DNA of 64,000 nucleotides from an uncultured Nitrospirales bacterium. Its GTDB lineage: Bacteria; Nitrospirota; Nitrospiria; Nitrospirales; UBA8639. Positions within the stretch are counted from its first letter, which is position 1; each line of letters begins with the position of its first letter. Made by a program: the position numbers and the translations under genes. The notes beneath the pieces were generated by a model. It did not search any database. It was not told the DNA's origin and was given only the letters and a program-made list of their open reading frames with translations. The stretch lies in NCBI GenBank assembly GCA_951812745.1, contig OX638327.1, forward strand, positions 62,001 through 126,000, in the 5' to 3' direction. This document shows positions 29,401 through 39,278 of the stretch, one piece after another.

Positions 29401-29775
29401 AGTATCCTATGTTCGTTGGCGGTTGTTGTCTCGTCGTCCTTGTCTCTGTTCAGTCATTCGTTGACGCGATTCATTCATTGGGTTGGAGAGCTGCGGTGGC
29501 TGAGGGACGCGGACCTCATTGTGAAGCTTTTCACGGCCCGGCACCGTCAGGCGCTAGGGCTTTCACCCACCTCGGCCCAGGCCAAGCGGGGTCACGCATC
29601 GATCATCACCACCAGAAAGCAGTGTCTCACCTAGCAGGTGTCGTTGCAACTGCGACGGCATCACGGACAACAAAGGAGGAGAACAGGAATGGCGGCTTGA
29701 GTGAGGGTATTTGCATTCCCGCCGGATGTTCCGGCATGTTTCAAACTTCACCCCCATCGGCGAGACTCGTCAAGC
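29401..29775. other. Leader region before the antiporter gene
   Basis: No convincing gene. The strongest ribosome site nearby, AAAGGAGGAG at about 29672-29681, serves a three-codon frame ATG-GCG-GCT-TGA (29689-29700). The next codons, starting GTG at 29701, are in the same frame and stay open into the antiporter. A regulatory leader or a nonsense change of an earlier start could explain this. Confidence 0.45.
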
Positions 29776-31398
29776 ATGATTGAAGAAGCGTTGTTGTCCA
29801 TCGGTCTGGTTATTGTTCTTGCCAAACTGGTCGAGGGCCTTCTCCGGCATTTCCGGCTGAACGCCATTGTGGCCTACACGGCCACGGGAATCCTGCTGGG
29901 ACCGGTGGCCGGAATCGTCGAGCCCACCGGCGAAATGCAGATCCTGCTGGGCATCGGCATCTTCCTCTTCTTCTTCCTCATCGGCCTGGACGAACTCGAT
30001 ATTTCCGGCTTCATTGCCGCCATCCGCGGCCGGTTCTTCGTCGCCGCGATGATATCAGTTCTCCTCTCTTTGGTCGTCGCTCTGACCGTCACTTCCGATG
30101 TGCTCTACGACTTCGGGCTGGGCCTTACGTTCGCCGGGTCGCTGGCTCTTGCCGGGATTCTTTCTTTGACCAGTCTGGGCGTGGTGGCCAAGGTTCTGGT
30201 TGATGAAGGTCGCCTCAAGGAACCCATCGGAATCCAAATATTCACCACCGCGCTCATTGCCGAGTTACTGACCCTGTTGTTGGTAGGATTCACCATCGGC
30301 GAGCACGTTCACCACTTGAGCTGGGAAAGCCTGCTCATCCTGCCGGCAAAGATTGCCGTCTTTACCGTGGTGACTTGGGTGTTGGCCAGCCGGGTGCTGC
30401 CACCCCTGATCGTTTTGCTGAAGCGCTTCCTGCACGTGCCGCAACTCTCCTTCGGACTGATCTTGGGCGGACTGTTCCTGACGGTCGTCGGCGCCGAGCA
30501 TATGGGGCTCCACGGCTCCCTGGGTGCGCTGCTGTTTGGGGTCGCTCTGTCGAAACTCCCGTATCACGTGCGGCGGGACATCATCCCCGGCATGAGAAGC
30601 ACCGCCGAGGGGCTGTTCGTGCCCCTTTTTTTCGCTTCGGCGGGGTTACACCTGAGCTTGGCCTTCACCGAGTTACCGGTGTGGACCATTGCGGCGTTGG
30701 TGTTCATTCCCCTGGTGGGAAAATTTGCCGCCGCTTACATCGGTGCCGTTGCGGCCCGTCTGGACATGCCGTCTGCGCTTGCCACGGGGCTGATGGCCAA
30801 AGGCGTTGCCGAAATGGCCCTCCTGCTGGTGCTTCTTGAGATCGACATGATCGGGCACGCCGTCTTCTCATTGCTCGTGCTCATCATGCTCGCCTACATC
30901 CTGCTCACGCCGCTGGCCATCCGCGCCGTTGTCAACCGGGTGAAGCCGTCGGACACAGTCATGTTGCCGGAATCGCTCCCGCCGTCGCTGGCCCGCTTTG
31001 CACTGGACGACATTACCGTGAGCGACATCCTCGACCGGACACGCACCTATCCCGACCCGGCGATGTCGGTCCGGGCCTTTGCCGACCAGTGGATTGTCCC
31101 CCACCAGCAGGACTACGCAGTCGTGGATCAAGGCGAGCTTTCCGGGATTGTGTCGTTGAGCATGCTGCGATACCTGCCCAAGGAGTCATGGTCCCAGACG
31201 CCGTTGCGCAAACTTGCGCGTCCCAGGACGCTGTACGCTTGGCCCGATGAGCCGGTGGAAGACGCGCTGCAGCGAATGACGGAGCACTCGTTGACGGTGA
31301 TACCGGTGAGGGACCGGGAGTCCCGGAAATTTCTGGGTGTGGTCAACATCCGGCAGATCCTGGAACTCATCACCCGAGAAGCCACCGGCGAATATTGA
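29776..31398 (+). CDS. CPA2-family cation/proton antiporter with CBS domains
   Basis: A 540-residue inner-membrane protein of the KefB/Na+:H+ antiporter type. About twelve helices fill residues 1-390, starting LLSIGLVIVLAKLVEGLLRHF and including IFLFFFLIGLDELDISGF and the TGLMAKGVAEMALLLVLLEID segment typical of CPA2 proteins. A pair of CBS-type modules follows (about 415-535, VSDILDRTRTYPDPAMSVRAFA, then LTVIPVRDRESRKFLGVVNI), suggesting adenine-nucleotide control. ATG 29776 gives the family start; the frame is open back to GTG 29701. Ion specificity cannot be read. Confidence 0.88.
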   Translation: MIEEALLSIGLVIVLAKLVEGLLRHFRLNAIVAYTATGILLGPVAGIVEPTGEMQILLGIGIFLFFFLIGLDELDISGFIAAIRGRFFVAAMISVLLSLVVALTVTSDVLYDFGLGLTFAGSLALAGILSLTSLGVVAKVLVDEGRLKEPIGIQIFTTALIAELLTLLLVGFTIGEHVHHLSWESLLILPAKIAVFTVVTWVLASRVLPPLIVLLKRFLHVPQLSFGLILGGLFLTVVGAEHMGLHGSLGALLFGVALSKLPYHVRRDIIPGMRSTAEGLFVPLFFASAGLHLSLAFTELPVWTIAALVFIPLVGKFAAAYIGAVAARLDMPSALATGLMAKGVAEMALLLVLLEIDMIGHAVFSLLVLIMLAYILLTPLAIRAVVNRVKPSDTVMLPESLPPSLARFALDDITVSDILDRTRTYPDPAMSVRAFADQWIVPHQQDYAVVDQGELSGIVSLSMLRYLPKESWSQTPLRKLARPRTLYAWPDEPVEDALQRMTEHSLTVIPVRDRESRKFLGVVNIRQILELITREATGEY

Positions 31399-31463: not shown

Positions 31464-31564
31464 AAGACAGTTGGCAATTCCGTGGCGATCAGAAACAATG
31501 CAATGTATAGAATTAAATAACGACAGGAAAGGCTTTCAATTCCTTTCGGATCATAGAGTGCGCT

Positions 31565-31705
31565 ATGGGTGAAAAAACAAATAAGGAGGTAGAGGCCGAG
31601 AAGGCGGAGGTCAAGCCCCTGGATGACGACGAGAAGGAAAAGATCGCCGGCGGCAATGCGCCCTATGGTTACGCGCCTGATGGCAAGATTTTGCCCGCCA
31701 GCTAG
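31565..31705 (+). CDS. 46-residue peptide with double-glycine leader (RiPP-like precursor candidate)
   Basis: A 46-residue frame with an acidic, Lys/Glu-rich leader ending LDDDEKEKIAGG and a tail NAPYGYAPDGKILPAS. Counting back from the last Gly, Leu-12, Glu-8, Ile-4, Gly-2 and Gly-1 match the consensus of double-glycine leaders cut by C39-type peptidases; Lys at -7 departs from it. The predicted core has two Tyr, one Lys and no Cys, so lanthipeptide or disulfide chemistry is excluded. The ribosome site is weak (GAGTG). It lies upstream of an oxygenase, transporter and FAD enzyme on the same strand. No C39 peptidase is visible. It may instead be a small unmodified peptide. Confidence 0.55.
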   Translation: MGEKTNKEVEAEKAEVKPLDDDEKEKIAGGNAPYGYAPDGKILPAS

Positions 31706-32083
31706 CGGGAATAGCGGCCCCGCCCCCTCATCCCGGGCCTTGCCGAGGCCTTCAGGAGGACGGGGAGGAACCTGAACAGGTCTTCACGTCCAGAGTGACG
31801 ACACCTCCGGTCGGCGCCCATCTTCAGGTCGGATTCGCCAGGCAGGTGTGACGCTCGCCGGTTTGAACCCGTGACATGAAACCCTCGGTCGGCTTCAAGC
31901 GTACCCCCGACCTTCCTGCTGCTCCATCATTGCTTTAGCCGGTCATTTACCCTATATTTGTGATTCAACGTCAGTACGAAAACCTCTTCTCGACGCTGCC
32001 TGTGCCCGATCCTCGGTCGAGTCCAGGGCAAGATCTATCGAGAATCTATTAGAGTGAGGCACCCTGATGGAGCTCCTCCCCCG
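31706..32083. other. Intergenic region between peptide gene and oxygenase
   Basis: No gene is supported. A GGCCT/AGGCC stem lies shortly after the peptide stop codon (about 31737-31752). An AT-richer stretch at about 31944-31965 (TTTACCCTATATTTGTG) could hold a promoter for the operon that follows, but no consensus pair is clear. Confidence 0.4.
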
Positions 32084-33238
32084 ATGCTAGAACCACCATC
32101 AGCCTATGTCGAAGGGTATGCGAAGGCCCGTCTTTGGGATCAGTTACAAGCCGACAACTATATCAGGCACACCACCATTGGTGATCCCGTCCTGGACCCG
32201 GTGCTGGAGGAGATCTCCTCGTTGCCTCCGGCCGACCTGTACCGGTTCGTCGAGGCTGGGATAGAGCAGCATGACGAGGTTCTACGCAATGCCCCGCAGG
32301 CCCTGCGGGAGTTCTTCAAAAATCTCGAAGAGCCTCCCTGGCTCGACTACGAAGCCTTTCGCCCAGGCGTTCGCGCGTTCAACGCAAACGTCGACCTCAT
32401 GCTCATCGCATTTGTGACGGGCGTGCTGGTGGAAGGGTTTTCGACGCTGATCGCCAAATCTTTCAACATGACCGGGCGAGTGGCGGCGACCCCAAGGCGC
32501 CTTCGGCAGAATAATCGCCAATTGCTGGAAATCTTTTACCCCGGTGGCCTGTTTAGAGACGGCGACGGCTGGAAGCTCTCCCTGCGCGTGCGCTTCGTCC
32601 ATGCTCGCATCAGGAGCCTGTTGGCGAAATCCGACGAGTGGAATCACAATGCGTGGGGCACGCCGCTCAGCGCGGCGCACTTGGGTTTTGCCATCTCCGT
32701 CTTTTCCCAACGCCTGTTGGAATACTCGTCGTTGGTGGGCGCTCGTTTCAACAAGGAAGAAAGAGAGAGCGTGCTTGCCGTGTGGCGTTACACCGGCTAT
32801 CTTATGGGGATCCCTGAAACCATCCTCTATACCAACAGCGCGGAAGCGAAAAAAATATACGGGATCACCCCTATGTGCGAGCCGCCGCCGGATGCCGATT
32901 CGATAGCCATGGCGAATGCGTTGATCAATTCCATTCCGGCAATTGCGAATATAAAAAATCAGGATGAAGAGAAACAAGTGCTCACGTTGGCCTACCGCCT
33001 GTCACGGGCTCTCCTTGGCAACCGACTCGCTGATCAGTTCCAGTATCCAAAGAGCTTTACCCTAGGAACCCTGTTTCTATACCGGAGCAAACAACGCTTT
33101 GTCCGATTTGCGAAGAACCAACAGATCATCAGATCACAAAATTTTTCTCAGCTTCTTCAAATCTCGGTGTACGACGAGGGTGGAGTGAGCTACAAGATGC
33201 CCGACCACGTCCACGCATCAAAATCAAGCGACTGGTAA
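32084..33238 (+). CDS. MpaB/DUF2236-type haem oxygenase-like protein
   Basis: A 384-residue mostly helical protein of the DUF2236 family, which includes the rubber oxygenase Lcp and the fungal MpaB enzyme, haem b proteins that cleave isoprenoid chains. The core segment has R132-X3-T136 (GRVAATPRR) and His173 (RVRFVHARIRSLL), matching the Arg-X3-Thr and axial His of Lcp as I recall them. W-N-H-N-AWGTPLS and AVWRYTGYLMGIPE are further family features. No signal peptide is clear. ATG 32084 is preferred because GGAG lies upstream; a GTG at 32054 is in frame. First gene of a five-gene run; substrate unknown. Confidence 0.8.
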   Translation: MLEPPSAYVEGYAKARLWDQLQADNYIRHTTIGDPVLDPVLEEISSLPPADLYRFVEAGIEQHDEVLRNAPQALREFFKNLEEPPWLDYEAFRPGVRAFNANVDLMLIAFVTGVLVEGFSTLIAKSFNMTGRVAATPRRLRQNNRQLLEIFYPGGLFRDGDGWKLSLRVRFVHARIRSLLAKSDEWNHNAWGTPLSAAHLGFAISVFSQRLLEYSSLVGARFNKEERESVLAVWRYTGYLMGIPETILYTNSAEAKKIYGITPMCEPPPDADSIAMANALINSIPAIANIKNQDEEKQVLTLAYRLSRALLGNRLADQFQYPKSFTLGTLFLYRSKQRFVRFAKNQQIIRSQNFSQLLQISVYDEGGVSYKMPDHVHASKSSDW

Positions 33239-33300
33239 GCGATGTTCGTGAGCACACGAAAGCTTGGACAGGGTGCGTTTGTCGTCGCTCCCACCCGGTG

Positions 33301-35598
33301 ATGGTCACGGCGATGACTCATTTGGACCGCTATATCGCCGGGATTCTGCACCGCCGGTGGCTGGTCGTGGTACTTGCGACGCTGGGCATGCTGGTCATGA
33401 CGTCGGGTGCCCGCTTCATTACCGTTTCGAATGATTATCGCATTCTGTTCAGCGAAGACAATCCGCAGCTCCTCGCGTTCGACGCGCTGGAGAACACCTA
33501 CTCCGCGTCGAATACGGCACTGATCGCCATCGCGCCCCGAGAAGGGTCGGTGTTCACCCGGGAGACGCTCGGCGCGGTTGAGGAACTGACCGAAGCCGCA
33601 TGGCGTATGCCGTATTCCGCTCGGGTCGATTCGCTCACCAACTATTCCCATAGCGAGGCGTTCGGCGACGATCTGGTTGTCGCCCCGCTCGTGGATGACG
33701 CCCAATCGAAGAGCGACGAAGAACTGGCGCGAATCGAGGAGGTCGCGTTGAGCGCGCCCCAGATAGCCGGGCGGCTGGTCGCCCATGACGGGCGTGTGGC
33801 CGGACTGGCCATCAATTTCGTCCTGCCGGAAAACCCGGACCAGGCAGTGTTCGAAATTACCGATTATCTCAATTCGCTCCTGGAGCAGGCCCGCGTAAAC
33901 CATCCGGACATCGACTATTACATGACCGGTACCGTCGTCATCAACCGGGCTTTCGCCGACGTCACCCAGGATGAACTGGAGACCCTGGTGCCGATCGTGT
34001 TTCTTCTCATCATAGGCTTGACGGTTATTCTCCTGCGCTCGGTCCTCGGCACGGTAGCCATCGTCGCCATTCTCCTGTTCGCCATCAATACCACCATGGG
34101 GTTCGCCGGCTGGGGCGGCCTGGTGATCAGCCCCACCAACTCCGGCGTGCCGATCATCGTCATGGTGATAGCCATTGCGGATTCCATCCACGTCGTCACG
34201 AGTGTTCTCCTGGGTATGAGGCGTGGTCTGGACAGAAACGCGGCGATTGCCGAATCGATTCGCATCAATACCTACCCGGTCTTTCTCACCTCGGTCACCA
34301 CCGCAATCGGGTTCCTTAGCCTGAACGCCTCGGATTCGCCGCCTTTTCACGTCCTGGGTAATCTCGTGGCATTCGGCGTATTCTGCGCCTTCGTGTACAC
34401 CATGACGCTCCTGCCGGCCTTGCTCTCGATTCTCCCATTGCGTGCGCCCCGTGTCCGGTCGGAGGGAACCGCCTTTTTCGACCGTTTTGCCGACTTTGTC
34501 ATCGCCCGGCGTACATTCGTGCTTTGGTCCCTCACCGTGGTGGTCGTTATCCTGATAACCGGCATTCCCCGTATTGAGCTGGGCGATAACCTGACGAAGT
34601 TTTTTGACGAACGTTACAAGGTCCGGCGCGATGCCGATTACATCGTTGAAAACCTGACCGGCATCGAGAAGCTGGAATATTCCCTAAACGCAGGGAGCGA
34701 AAGCGGCATCACCGATCCCGATTCCCTGCGTAAGGTCGAGGCTTTCGCCGAATGGTATCGCCGGCAACCCGAAGTGACCCACGTCCAGGCCTTTTCGGAC
34801 ATCATGAAACGTCTGAACAAAAATATGCACGGCGACGATCCGGCTTTCTATCGCCTGCCTGAAAGCCAGAATCTCGCCGCGCAGTACCTGTTGTTGTACG
34901 AGCTTTCGCTGCCGTTCGGCAGCGATCTCAACGACCGCATCGATATCGCCAAATCCGCGACGCGCATGACCGTCGTGCTCAAGAATGCGACGTCTCGAGA
35001 CCTGCGTGAACTCGATAAGCGCGCACAGGTCTGGCTCCGCGCCAATGCCCCCGCTTTTGCGCACGAAGCATCAGGGCTGAGCGTCGTCATGGCGCATGTG
35101 TCAGAACGAAACATCGACAGCATGTTGGGCAGTACGATCTTCGCCATGGCTCTTATATCGTTCATCCTGATCTGGGTGTTCAAGAGCATCCGGATCGGAC
35201 TCCTCAGTCTTCTCCCCAATTTCATCCCTGCGCTCATGACTTTCGGCCTGTGGGGCCATCTCGTCGGCCACATGGGCATGGTTTCCTCGGTGGTCGTCGC
35301 CGTCGTTTTCGGAATCGTCGTGGACGATACGATTCATTTTCTGAGCAAATATCTGAAGGCCCGCCGCGAGGGGCTCACGGCGCCCGAGGCCGTGCGCTCC
35401 GTCTTTCACACCGTGGGCCATGCGCTATGGACCACAACCGCGGTCCTATCGGCGGGCTTTCTGGTTTTCACCGCATCGGGATTCGAGCTCAGTTGGGTGC
35501 TCGGGCTTTTGGTCACGATCACGATCATCTTCGCGTTGGCCGCCGATTTTCTGCTCCTTCCGACTCTGCTGATTGCCATCGACCGGAGAAATCCATGA
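33301..35598 (+). CDS. MMPL-type RND transporter
   Basis: A 765-residue inner-membrane exporter with two similar halves, each one helix, a large periplasmic loop and five clustered helices. The first loop spans about residues 35-215 and the second about 420-600. Family features include the Gly-Asp rich segments TNSGVPIIVMVIAIADSIHV and VVAVVFGIVVDDTIHFLSKY with the proton-relay Asp residues. This class moves lipids and other hydrophobic molecules, HpnN for hopanoids being an example. It lies 60 bases after the oxygenase gene and upstream of LolA-like and barrel genes, so it likely exports the product of the cluster. A GTG at 33298 and an ATG at 33313 are alternative starts. Confidence 0.88.
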   Translation: MVTAMTHLDRYIAGILHRRWLVVVLATLGMLVMTSGARFITVSNDYRILFSEDNPQLLAFDALENTYSASNTALIAIAPREGSVFTRETLGAVEELTEAAWRMPYSARVDSLTNYSHSEAFGDDLVVAPLVDDAQSKSDEELARIEEVALSAPQIAGRLVAHDGRVAGLAINFVLPENPDQAVFEITDYLNSLLEQARVNHPDIDYYMTGTVVINRAFADVTQDELETLVPIVFLLIIGLTVILLRSVLGTVAIVAILLFAINTTMGFAGWGGLVISPTNSGVPIIVMVIAIADSIHVVTSVLLGMRRGLDRNAAIAESIRINTYPVFLTSVTTAIGFLSLNASDSPPFHVLGNLVAFGVFCAFVYTMTLLPALLSILPLRAPRVRSEGTAFFDRFADFVIARRTFVLWSLTVVVVILITGIPRIELGDNLTKFFDERYKVRRDADYIVENLTGIEKLEYSLNAGSESGITDPDSLRKVEAFAEWYRRQPEVTHVQAFSDIMKRLNKNMHGDDPAFYRLPESQNLAAQYLLLYELSLPFGSDLNDRIDIAKSATRMTVVLKNATSRDLRELDKRAQVWLRANAPAFAHEASGLSVVMAHVSERNIDSMLGSTIFAMALISFILIWVFKSIRIGLLSLLPNFIPALMTFGLWGHLVGHMGMVSSVVVAVVFGIVVDDTIHFLSKYLKARREGLTAPEAVRSVFHTVGHALWTTTAVLSAGFLVFTASGFELSWVLGLLVTITIIFALAADFLLLPTLLIAIDRRNP

Positions 35599-35672: not shown

Positions 35673-37022
35673 ATGAAAGCAAAAAGAGTCGTCGTTATTG
35701 GCGGAGGAGCGGCCGGACTGAGCGCCGCCTGGACCCTCAAGAAGCGCGGCATCAACGTCATCTTGCTTGAAGCCAACGACCGGGTCGGCGGACGCTTGGG
35801 CGGCGACCGGGTGGACGGCTTTTCCATCGACGAGGGTGCCGACTTCTTCACTCCCTCTTACGACATTGCTTTTCGCTTGTGCGAGGAGTTGGAATTGCCA
35901 CTGATTTGCTCAAGAATGAACCTCGGCTGGTATAGAAGCGGCCGGTGGTTTGCGACGACCCCGGTCGTATCCCTTCGCACCTTCATCCAGAACCTGTCAG
36001 CTTTTTGGAGGTTGGGAATGTTGTCCCCTGGAGCCATGAGGTTTGTCAAGATGGTCAAGGATCAATCGGAGTACCTGAATTTCCACAGCGACTGCAGGAT
36101 CGTCGAGTTGGACGGGGAGGAGAACGCCCATGACTACATGGAAAAGATCGGTGTGCCCGAACACCTGAGGGTGACGTTGCAGGGATTTCTGGAGATGACC
36201 ATGGGCACGCTTGAACAAATGGGTGCTGCCTACGCCCTGACGTATTTGTCCGATATCATGATGAAGGCCGATAAGCTACTTGTGCCAGAGAAGGGAGTCG
36301 GTGCCCTGTCACACGCCCTGGCCGACAAATTAGGAGACATGATTCGCGTCTCCACACCCGTCAGAGGAGTGGTCATCAAGGATGGGGTTGTGACCGGCGT
36401 GATCGTGGATGACGGCTCCATCAAAGCGGATGCGGTCATCTGTGCCACCTCTGCCTCGAAGGTGGCGGAAATCATTCCTGACCTGCCCGACGGAATTCAC
36501 CAGGTGCTCAGCAAGGTAAGCTATTCCAAGGGATGTCGAGTGGTGATCGGCTTGGACCATCCCCCTCTTCCCCTCGGATGGCACGGAGCGTTGTACCCGG
36601 AGGACGAAACTCCATTGCTACTGGACCGCTCCATCAACCTGCCCGCCTGTGTGCCGCCGGGCAAGAGCACGCTCGACCTGCTCGTCGGTCGTGACCGCGC
36701 GGAGGAGTTGTTTCCACTGGACGACGAAGAAATTAAGCGCCGGATGCTTCGCGATGCGCGCCGGAATCCCCCGCCTGGTTCCAACCTTCCCGGCGACGAC
36801 GAGGGATTGTTTACTCGCGTGTACCGCTGGCGGGAGGCGGTGTGCATGGGATCGCCCGGCATGTTCAAGGCAGTGGCCCAGATGCGCCAACGCGACCGGG
36901 AGGTGAAGAACCTCTTCCTGGCAGGTGACTATATGCGGGTGCCCTGTGTGAACGGCGCTTTGGCCAGCGGCGTCGATGCGGCCGAGGAGGTTGCGAAGTT
37001 GCTGGGGGCCCGTCCATTATAA
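35673..37022 (+). CDS. FAD-dependent amine-oxidase/PPOX-like oxidoreductase
   Basis: A 449-residue flavoprotein. The N-terminal dinucleotide fold VVVIGGGAAGLSAAWTL with the following LLEANDRVGGRLGG is classical for the amine oxidase, protoporphyrinogen oxidase and phytoene desaturase superfamily. The C-terminal FAD segment LAGDYMRVPCVNGALASGVDAAEEV is also typical. AGGAGA precedes the ATG. Protoporphyrinogen oxidase itself is less likely since neighbours are not haem genes. Acting on the same substrate as the DUF2236 protein is plausible. Substrate unknown. Confidence 0.85.
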   Translation: MKAKRVVVIGGGAAGLSAAWTLKKRGINVILLEANDRVGGRLGGDRVDGFSIDEGADFFTPSYDIAFRLCEELELPLICSRMNLGWYRSGRWFATTPVVSLRTFIQNLSAFWRLGMLSPGAMRFVKMVKDQSEYLNFHSDCRIVELDGEENAHDYMEKIGVPEHLRVTLQGFLEMTMGTLEQMGAAYALTYLSDIMMKADKLLVPEKGVGALSHALADKLGDMIRVSTPVRGVVIKDGVVTGVIVDDGSIKADAVICATSASKVAEIIPDLPDGIHQVLSKVSYSKGCRVVIGLDHPPLPLGWHGALYPEDETPLLLDRSINLPACVPPGKSTLDLLVGRDRAEELFPLDDEEIKRRMLRDARRNPPPGSNLPGDDEGLFTRVYRWREAVCMGSPGMFKAVAQMRQRDREVKNLFLAGDYMRVPCVNGALASGVDAAEEVAKLLGARPL

Positions 37023-37082: not shown

Positions 37083-37910
37083 ATGAGAATGATCCCTGCT
37101 TATCCCGTCAGATCGGTGCTTGTGCTGCTCGCGCCGTGCCTGGTCTTGTCGTTGTGGCTGGGGATGCCGTCCCTCGTGCACCCGGCCACCCCAGAGGAAA
37201 TCGGGCTCAAGATCGCCACTGAAGCCAGCGCCCGTGATGACGGCTTTGGCAATTTCACGGCCACTCAAGCCATGGTGCTGCGCAACAAGCAGGGGCAGGA
37301 GAGCCGGCGCCAGCTCCGCGTCAAGGTGCTGGAGGTAACCGATGACGGCGACAAGAGCCTGATGGTGTTCGACGAGCCACGGGACGTCAAGGGGACCGCG
37401 CTGCTCACCCACGCCCATAAGCAGGAGGCGGACGACCAATGGCTCTATCTCCCGGCGCTGAAACGGGTCAAGCGGATCAGTTCGTCGAACCGGTCCGGCT
37501 CCTTCATGGGCAGCGAATTCTCCTATGAGGACCTGAGTGCCCCGGAGGTGGAAAAATACACCTATCGGTACCTGCGGGACGAGCCGTGCGGGAAATTGAC
37601 GTGCACGGTCTGCGAACGCTTCCCGGTGGACAAGAAAGCCTCGGGCTACAGCCGCCAAGTGGTCTGGCAGGACAAGGACGAGCTGCGCACCTGGAAAGTC
37701 GAGTACTACGACCGCAAGGACTCGCACCTGAAAACGCTCACCATTGGGAACTACACGCAACACCTGGACCGGTACTGGCGCGCCGGTGAGATGACCATGG
37801 TCAATCATCTGACGGGCAAGAGTACCGTATTGAACTGGGCGGCTTATCAGTTTCGTACCAAACTCAAAGAGCGTGATTTCAGCAAGACCGGATTAAAACG
37901 GGCCCGGTGA
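37083..37910 (+). CDS. LolA-like outer membrane lipoprotein-sorting family protein
   Basis: A 275-residue exported protein with signal peptide (about 1-35), preceded by AGGAG. It belongs to the LolA-like family often encoded beside MMPL transporters; the visible segments are SLMVFDEPRDVKGTALLTHAHK, DDQWLYLPALKRVKRISSSNRSGSF and MGSEFSYEDLS, the last two very typical. LolA-fold proteins carry lipid chains across the periplasm. Its stop overlaps the start of the barrel gene, so the pair is translationally coupled. The cargo is unknown. Confidence 0.88.
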   Translation: MRMIPAYPVRSVLVLLAPCLVLSLWLGMPSLVHPATPEEIGLKIATEASARDDGFGNFTATQAMVLRNKQGQESRRQLRVKVLEVTDDGDKSLMVFDEPRDVKGTALLTHAHKQEADDQWLYLPALKRVKRISSSNRSGSFMGSEFSYEDLSAPEVEKYTYRYLRDEPCGKLTCTVCERFPVDKKASGYSRQVVWQDKDELRTWKVEYYDRKDSHLKTLTIGNYTQHLDRYWRAGEMTMVNHLTGKSTVLNWAAYQFRTKLKERDFSKTGLKRAR

Positions 37911-39271
37911 TGCGAGACGGTGCCGCTCGTTATGCCTTGGCCCTCACGACGATCTGGCTGGCGGCATCGGTTCTTGCCGTCGAAGCCCATGCGGAAATCG
38001 AGTTCGCGGCCTGGGAGTTGTCCGGGCGCGTGAGCCTCGAAAGCCGTTACTTTCCGAGAACCGGCATTGACCCCAGCCATCAGAGTTCGAATACGAACGG
38101 CTTTGTGCTGGAGCCCAAACTCTACGTTGAAGACGTCGAGGGAAGAAGCGTGACCGTGTTGCCGTTCTTTCGCTACGACAGCGCGGACCCAGTCCGCACC
38201 CACTGGGATCTGCGTGAAGCGTATGTTCTGCTGTTCGGCGAACTCGGCGAGAACGAATGGGAAGTCCGGCTGGGCGCGGACCGGGTGTTCTGGGGCGTGA
38301 CCGAATCGCAACACCTGGTCGATATCGTCAACCAGATCGACTTCCTCGAACATCCCAATGGTAAGGTGAAGTTGGGGCAACCCATGGTGCACGTGACGTG
38401 GACCGCCGATTGGGGCGTCTTGGAATTCTTCGGGCTGCCGTATCACCGCCCGCGTATCTTCCCGGGCCAAGGCGGTCGCCTGCGCTTCGCAGGACTCTTG
38501 GACAACGAGCGGGTGGAGTATCAGAGCGGGGCCGAGGAGTGGCATCCGGATTTCGCGGCCCGCTACAGTCACAGCTTCGGACCCCTGGATATCGGCGTGA
38601 GTGTATTCGATGGCACGAGCCGGGAAGCGACCCTGGTTTGTGTGCCGCCTGCTTGTAACCCGAGGGAGATCAGTGACCTCTCCAATGTCTTGATTCCGTA
38701 CTATGCGCAGATCCGTCAGTTCGGGCTGGACGCGCAACTGACGCTCGGCGCTTGGTTGTTCAAGCTGGAGGCGATGCATCGCTCGGGCGAACGCAATGCG
38801 CTCGGTCTCCAACAGGAGTCCAATGCTACCGAGTTGCGGGGAATTGGGTTTGAAGATATTCTTGGTCTGTATCGGGAAGAGGAGTACGTGGCCGCCGTGG
38901 TGGGGGGCGAATACACGTTCTATTCCGTCTTCGGCTCTACGGCCGACATCGGCCTGCTGGCCGAATGGAATTATGATGAGCGTGGCCGGCAAGCGCTTCC
39001 CAGGCGGCAGCCCCTGACGCTCGACAACGATTTTTTCTTCGGCGCGCTTCTGGCGTTCAACGACGTCGAGAGCACCGAGATCAAAGTCGCGTTTTTGACG
39101 GACGCGAGCCGTGCGACCCGCACCCTGGCTGCCGAATTCGACCGGCGGCTCTCCGATCAATGGTCTCTGCACGTGGAGTCGAGTTCGATTCTCAGCATGG
39201 ACCCAGACGACATTCAATGGGTGGGACGGCGTGACAGCTTCTTCGAGTTCCACCTGGAGTACAATTTCTAG
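37910..39271 (+). CDS. Outer-membrane beta-barrel protein
   Basis: A 453-residue protein with signal peptide (cut near AHAEIEF), then alternating amphipathic beta segments with aromatic girdles (LSGRVSLESRYF, VTVLPFFRYDS, REAYVLLFG, WEVRLGADRVFWG) and a C-terminal strand ending in Phe (FFEFHLEYNF), the usual BAM signal. The pattern resembles DUF1302-like barrels that accompany MMPL and LolA-like genes. The start overlaps the upstream stop (TGATG; GTG at 37907 is an alternative). Likely the outer-membrane end of the export path. Confidence 0.82.
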   Translation: MRDGAARYALALTTIWLAASVLAVEAHAEIEFAAWELSGRVSLESRYFPRTGIDPSHQSSNTNGFVLEPKLYVEDVEGRSVTVLPFFRYDSADPVRTHWDLREAYVLLFGELGENEWEVRLGADRVFWGVTESQHLVDIVNQIDFLEHPNGKVKLGQPMVHVTWTADWGVLEFFGLPYHRPRIFPGQGGRLRFAGLLDNERVEYQSGAEEWHPDFAARYSHSFGPLDIGVSVFDGTSREATLVCVPPACNPREISDLSNVLIPYYAQIRQFGLDAQLTLGAWLFKLEAMHRSGERNALGLQQESNATELRGIGFEDILGLYREEEYVAAVVGGEYTFYSVFGSTADIGLLAEWNYDERGRQALPRRQPLTLDNDFFFGALLAFNDVESTEIKVAFLTDASRATRTLAAEFDRRLSDQWSLHVESSSILSMDPDDIQWVGRRDSFFEFHLEYNF

Positions 39272-39278
39272 TCCCACG

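What the first reader, a model, noticed from the sequence alone, without database searches (positions are those of the whole stretch)
31565..31705. A 46-residue peptide gene with a textbook double-glycine leader in front of an oxygenase-transporter operon
Counting back from IAGG, Leu-12, Glu-8, Ile-4, Gly-2 and Gly-1 all match the consensus of leaders cleaved by C39-type peptidases, while Lys at -7 departs from it. The predicted core NAPYGYAPDGKILPAS has two Tyr, a Lys and three Pro but no Cys, so known thioether chemistry is ruled out. Downstream lie a haem oxygenase-like protein, an FAD oxidase-like protein and an exporter, any of which could modify or move a peptide. The weak ribosome site and missing C39 peptidase are arguments against.
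Basis: partly seen in the sequence, partly recalled or inferred. Interest (0 to 1): 0.75.

Follow-up and report, generated by a model that had tools for sequence, protein, structure and literature searches.

The report
Sponge-symbiont secreted peptide gene, distant exporter
A tiny gene found only in one group of nitrite-oxidising bacteria, most of whose genomes come from marine sponges, encodes a 46-residue precursor that is very probably cut after a Gly-Gly signal and secreted by a dedicated exporter encoded elsewhere in the genome, giving a short, strongly conserved peptide of unknown job.

Summary
Confirmed as a gene. The 46-codon ORF at 31565-31705 has an orthologue at the same place in 9 other genomes of its genus (GTDB "bin75", Ca. 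Nitrosymbion; mostly sponge symbionts). None was found elsewhere in 396 sampled Nitrospirota genomes or in 84,980 GTDB species. All insertions are multiples of three; pooled pN/pS is about 0.5. The leader ends LDxDELEKIAGG; the core ends YAPDGxILP.

The "missing" C39 peptidase exists. All ten carriers have an NHLM-type peptidase-ABC exporter, here about 233 kb away in a YcaO/NHLP RiPP cluster, whose own NHLP leader ends EEEQLEAIAAG, matching at the positions this peptidase family reads. Best reading: an unlinked substrate of that exporter, giving a secreted 16-20-residue peptide, possibly unmodified.

The operon link is weaker. MpaB, RND and FAD each have a paralogue in the RiPP cluster (the FAD gene's only one). 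But conserved promoters separate peptide from operon, the FAD gene is at 2 of 9 readable loci, and the peptide survives where MpaB (G188) or MpaB and RND (G191) are deleted. In this genome position -7 is Lys, a change that strongly impaired a related peptidase. Function (signal, microcin or RiPP) remains open.

The parts
31471..31499 (+). promoter of the peptide gene: -35 TTGGCA (31471-31476), 17-bp spacer, -10 AACAAT (31494-31499)
   Evidence: TTGACA (TTGGCA in this genome) -17- AAYAAT upstream of the gene in 10 of 10 orthologous loci (alignment of five loci)
31565..31705 (+). 46-codon peptide precursor gene
   Evidence: orthologues in 10 genomes of the genus, codon-wise constraint
31565..31654 (+). 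leader, residues 1-30, ending LDDDEKEKIAGG; cut expected after Gly30
   Evidence: alignment A1; match to the C39 leader motif (PMC6363468) and to the genome's own NHLP leader EMEEEQLEAIAAG
31655..31702 (+). predicted core NAPYGYAPDGKILPAS; conserved APDGxILP
   Evidence: alignment A1
31930..31958 (+). separate promoter of the MpaB operon: TTGCTT -17- TATATT
   Evidence: TTGYYT-17-TATAKT in 9 of 10 loci
32054..33238 (+). MpaB/Lcp-family (DUF2236, PF09995) oxygenase; true start possibly ATG 32084
   Evidence: Pfam E 4.7e-19; 57-residue C-terminal remnant in G188 and short N-terminal remnant in G191
33298..35598 (+). RND (HAE3/MMPL) exporter
   Evidence: paralogue at 46% identity in the RiPP cluster
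35673..37022 (+). FAD amine-oxidase-type flavoprotein; present at this locus only here and in G193
   Evidence: its only paralogue in the genome borders the RiPP cluster
37083..37910 (+). LolA-like outer-membrane lipoprotein-sorting protein (PF17131)
   Evidence: kept in the nine loci that reach it (frameshifted in G195)
37907..39274 (+). DUF1302-like outer-membrane protein
   Evidence: weak Pfam match; kept in the nine loci that reach it (frameshifted in G195)
29701..31398 (+). CPA2 cation/proton antiporter, upstream syntenic neighbour

Best explanation
The gene encodes the precursor of a small secreted peptide. It is transcribed from its own sigma-70-type promoter. The 30-residue double-glycine leader is recognised through its last ~12 residues and cut after Gly30 by the C39 domain of the NHLM-type peptidase-ABC exporter (with its HlyD and second ABC subunit) encoded about 233 kb away in a YcaO/NHLP RiPP cluster, and the 16-20-residue core ending YAPDGxILP is exported. 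Shown here: the gene, its conservation, its conserved promoter sequence, the leader/core pattern, the exporter's presence in every carrier with an intact catalytic triad, and the similarity of the two leader ends. Inferred: that this exporter is the one used, that the core leaves the cell, and that a core this conserved acts as a signal or symbiosis factor rather than as a diversifying bacteriocin. Modification by the neighbouring operon is possible but not needed.
For: Orthologues at one syntenic locus in 10 genomes, 46-78% identity; in-frame indels and pN/pS about 0.5 pooled, dN/dS 0.2-0.5 for most pairs; conserved promoter 10/10. A C39 exporter is found in 10/10 carriers; it exceeds the TIGR03796 cut-off (880 vs 853 bits), and its partners match TIGR03797 and TIGR03794, below their cut-offs. 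The exporter sits next to nth in nine carriers at 79-89% identity and, more divergent at 61%, in G193. Of the non-carriers, G200 and G194 keep nth-pntB-ald with no exporter beside nth, and G189 and G194 have no C39 hit at all. Catalytic Cys31, His104 and Asp120 are invariant in ten C39 domains, and the closest solved structure is LahT147, 6mpz, E 7e-38. LahT150 needs only the last 13 leader residues and cleaves NHLP, Nif11 and short leaders alike (PMC6363468). The genome's NHLP leader ends M-12, acidic -9 to -11, Q-8, L-7, E-6, I-4, A-3, A-2, G-1, the same pattern. Precursors encoded far from their modification and export genes are documented for this system (PMC2887384).
Against: This genome's copy has Lys at -7; Leu-7 to Lys strongly impaired LahT150 (PMC6363468), so cleavage here may be poor. 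The carriers form one clade on a four-gene tree, so exporter and peptide may co-occur through a single event; G197, the one non-carrier with a full-length exporter (a different one), lacks both marker loci and may be incomplete. No family model hits the peptide. No transcript or peptide data.
Confidence: 0.7

Rival explanations
1. The peptide is a RiPP precursor tailored by the adjacent operon: the MpaB/Lcp-type oxygenase and the FAD enzyme oxidise core residues, and the RND pump exports the product or gives immunity.
For: Each of the three operon families has a paralogue in the 21-kb YcaO/NHLP RiPP cluster: MpaB 40%, RND 46%, FAD 40%, and the FAD copy is the only other one in the genome. In G199 the RiPP cluster also has MpaB, RND and an FAD homologue. 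The core has invariant Asp-Gly and a nearly invariant Tyr.
Against: Separate conserved promoters. FAD gene at 2 of 9 readable loci; MpaB reduced to a remnant in G188; MpaB and most of RND deleted in G191, which has no MpaB homologue at E 1e-20 anywhere, yet the peptide is intact. MpaB homologues elsewhere have no such short peptide within 1.5 kb. The core Lys is not conserved (Thr or Arg in others). The paper library gave no DUF2236-RiPP link.
Confidence: 0.15
2. An unmodified class II microcin-like bacteriocin cut by the same exporter (same processing as the best explanation, but a killing function).
For: Class II microcins use double-glycine leaders and C39 exporters (PMC9746304, listed).
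Against: No immunity gene recognised beside it; the core is short (16-20 aa) and conserved rather than diversifying; not found on plasmids.
Confidence: 0.2
3. A cytoplasmic or regulatory small protein, or a cis-acting leader ORF for the operon, whose Gly-Gly is coincidental.
For: Lys-7 in this genome; the N-terminus is highly charged; it lies upstream of an operon.
Against: Leader positions -12, -4, -2 and -1 are kept across orthologues with Leu/Met at -7 in 9 of 10, and length variation lies before Leu-12 and just after Gly-Gly, as in leader/core precursors. The MpaB operon has its own conserved promoter 225 bp downstream of the peptide stop, so attenuation by a leader ORF has little to act on.
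Confidence: 0.1

Closest known systems
NHLP/NHLM RiPP export system (Haft 2010, PMC2887384; TIGR03793, 03794, 03796, 03797)
   Same: Leader end and Gly-Gly site match; the same genome holds one NHLM exporter; NHLP precursors are known to lie far from exporter genes
   Different: No nitrile-hydratase-like leader body: 30-residue leader instead of ~80; core without heterocyclisable Cys
Short double-glycine peptides of class II bacteriocins and ComC-type pheromones (TIGR01847-like leaders)
   Same: Leader of about 24-30 residues with L-12, E-8, L-7, I/V-4, GG; short core
   Different: No family-model hit; no kinase/regulator pair or immunity gene recognised directly beside it; exporter of NHLM type
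EbfG peptides with the PteB C39 transporter of Synechococcus elongatus (PMC4997328)
   Same: Small GG-motif peptides of a Gram-negative-type cell whose secretion needs a C39 peptidase transporter; role in group behaviour, not killing
   Different: Sequence relation not tested; different phylum; the family here is single-copy and genus-restricted

Membership tests
C39-processed double-glycine leader peptides | leader motif L-12, E-8, L-7, I/V-4, G-2 (or A), G-1 | tested here: met
   Met by the ten orthologues as a family, with exceptions: Lys-7 in the window copy, Lys-8 and Ala-2 in G188, Val-8 in G198
C39-processed double-glycine leader peptides | a C39 peptidase-ABC exporter in the same genome with intact Cys/His/Asp | tested here: met
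   10 of 10 carriers; triad invariant
C39-processed double-glycine leader peptides | cleavage after Gly-Gly and export | not testable with these tools
   needs biochemistry
NHLP precursor family (TIGR03793) | nitrile-hydratase-like leader above the model cut-off | tested here: not met
   no NCBIfam hit for the peptide; in this genome the model finds only the separate precursor at C1:2202819
TOMM / thiazole-oxazole peptides | core rich in Cys/Ser/Thr and a YcaO enzyme beside the precursor | tested here: not met
   core has no Cys; the YcaO gene is in the distant cluster
RiPP made by the MpaB/FAD operon | enzyme genes kept wherever the precursor is kept | tested here: not met
   FAD gene at 2 of 9 readable loci; MpaB or MpaB+RND deleted in G188 and G191
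Class II microcin | antibacterial activity and immunity gene | not testable with these tools
   no activity data; no immunity gene recognised next to the peptide
TIGR01847 bacteriocin-type signal sequence | model hit | tested here: inconclusive
   no NCBIfam family at E<=1; I did not check that this old model is still in release 20

The most novel reading that the evidence does not exclude
A new RiPP class of sponge symbionts in which a Cys-free core (YAPDGxILP) is oxidised by an MpaB/Lcp-type oxygenase module that duplicated out of a YcaO/NHLP cluster, and is exported by that cluster's NHLM system in trans, serving as a conserved symbiosis or population signal.
Probability: 0.12. Interest if true: 0.8.

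Novelty: new member of a known kind. Interest (0 to 1): 0.45.

Why it matters
It shows a double-glycine peptide, unlinked from its likely exporter, in a genus of nitrite oxidisers found mostly in sponges and for which I found no reported secreted peptide. A core conserved across ten species looks more like a message than like a weapon, and would give a concrete candidate for signalling inside the sponge holobiont. It also warns that genome-mining rules that require the peptidase beside the precursor miss such genes. The MpaB-RND-FAD set shared by two peptide loci hints at an uncharacterised tailoring or transport module.

Tried and rejected
Rfam: nothing (one chance hit). Pfam/NCBIfam on the peptide: no real hit. 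Wider homologues: none significant in Nitrospirota beyond the genus (weak matches at E 0.01-0.1 only), none in plasmids, no solved relative. Degenerate-codon search for other short double-glycine peptides in this genome: no convincing candidate, but the pattern demands a hydrophobic -7 codon and a final GG, so it misses the finding itself and the genome's NHLP. Haem-oxygenase reading of the first operon gene: it is MpaB/Lcp family. First guess that the exporter is irrelevant because non-adjacent: dropped. The methionyl-tRNA synthetase tree puts G197 and G200 inside the carriers, which would mean two co-losses of peptide and exporter; the four-gene tree puts G200 outside, so I do not use that argument.

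Full report
What was checked. The ORF at 31565-31705 reads as stated. The window lies at C1:62001-126000 of a single-contig genome of 2.35 Mb. Named relatives carrying the gene are Nitrospira/Nitrospirales MAGs, among them "bin75", the name of the GTDB genus now called Ca. Nitrosymbion, whose MAGs come predominantly from marine sponges (PMC11812461). That the window's genus is this one is inferred from those record names.

Is it a gene? Yes. Ten of 14 genomes of the genus hold it, the other nine 46-78% identical to this copy, always between the CPA2 antiporter and the MpaB operon wherever the contig allows a look. Gaps in the coding part are multiples of three; most pairwise dN/dS values are 0.2-0.5, pooled pN/pS about 0.5, similar for leader and core. 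Nothing significant was found in 396 Nitrospirota genomes or in the GTDB collection beyond such MAGs. A motif scan of about 755 kb of fetched DNA returned only this family and NHLP precursors.

Anatomy. Consensus leader MDEKxNKExxxEKxxxxxPLDxDELEKIAGG, core xGPxxxPYYAPDGTILPxx. Invariant: Leu-12, Asp-11, Ile-4, Gly-1, and in the core P33, A37, D39, G40. Position -7 is Leu in eight genomes, Met in one and Lys here. G193 has an altered end (PDGTPWKPQ). The start is ATG, or GTG in G195 and G196.

Transcription. TTGACA-17-AAYAAT lies 94-172 bp upstream of the start in 10/10 loci (TTGGCA here, 31471-31499). A second promoter, TTGYYT-17-TATAKT, lies between peptide and MpaB in 9/10 loci (31930-31958 here). 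So peptide and operon look like separate units, though read-through is not excluded.

The exporter. PF03412 finds one in 12 of 14 genomes of the genus, including all ten carriers. In this genome it belongs to an NHLM exporter (C39-ABC over its TIGR03796 cut-off; second ABC and HlyD subunits below theirs) at C1:2.203-2.209 Mb, about 233 kb away if the contig is circular. It sits beside nth-pntB-ald in nine carriers at 79-89% identity and, more divergent at 61%, beside nth in G193. G200 and G194, without the peptide, keep nth-pntB-ald with no exporter there. Its C39 domain keeps Cys/His/Asp and is closest to LahT (6mpz). LahT needs only the last 13 leader residues and cuts very different leaders (PMC6363468). 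The genome's own NHLP precursor ends EMEEEQLEAIAAG|RCCC, aligning position by position with the family's LDDDELEKIAGG.

The RiPP cluster and the operon. From 2.188 to 2.209 Mb lie an FAD enzyme, a desaturase-GlnE-like protein, a YcaO/SagD protein, an MpaB paralogue, a methyltransferase, an RND pump, the NHLP precursor and the exporter. The window operon's MpaB, RND and FAD each have a paralogue there; the FAD gene has no other paralogue in the genome. This makes a functional link between the window operon and peptide biosynthesis plausible. But the FAD gene is at only 2 of the 9 loci that can be read, G188 has only a 57-residue MpaB remnant, and G191 has lost MpaB and most of RND without N runs at the junctions, while the peptide is intact. 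Assembly collapse is not fully excluded. So the operon does not seem to be needed for whatever keeps the peptide under selection.

Limits. Carriers form one clade on a four-gene tree, so exporter-peptide co-occurrence may rest on one event. Lys-7 in this genome is the type of change that strongly impaired LahT; the peptide may be poorly processed here, or its exporter may tolerate it. Nothing here shows export, modification or activity.

Verdict. A real, new, genus-restricted double-glycine peptide, most likely a substrate in trans of an NHLM exporter.

Noticed in passing
L038:2805-3050 (-), G000:C1:2202804-2203049; also L043, L048, L085, L088, L090, L091, L094: NHLP precursors of the genus with tiny cores, RCCC, LCCCW or LCCCGI after an AG site; several lie beside YcaO genes. 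A conserved 4-6-residue tri-cysteine core would be an unusually small thiazole peptide.
   Followed up: partly
L083:20-2131 and L087:1156-3600: A single ORF joins a fatty-acid desaturase domain to a GlnE/GlnD-like nucleotidyltransferase domain, next to the YcaO gene.
   Followed up: no
L013:7872-8449 and L017:357-1251: Clean deletions of MpaB (G188) and of MpaB plus most of RND (G191) beside an intact peptide gene.
   Followed up: partly
window 31705-31830, L013, L021: A conserved non-coding stretch GAGGAACCTGAACAGG...CAGAGTGACG lies just downstream of the peptide stop in three genomes.
   Followed up: no
G000:C1:2294484-2295413: An RND gene with an internal deletion (residues ~144-588 missing), about 4-6 kb from an intact copy 64% identical to the window RND.
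   Followed up: no
L164-L177: The methionyl-tRNA synthetase tree places G200 with G195 and G197 with G198, in conflict for G200 with the four-gene tree: possible gene transfer.
   Followed up: partly
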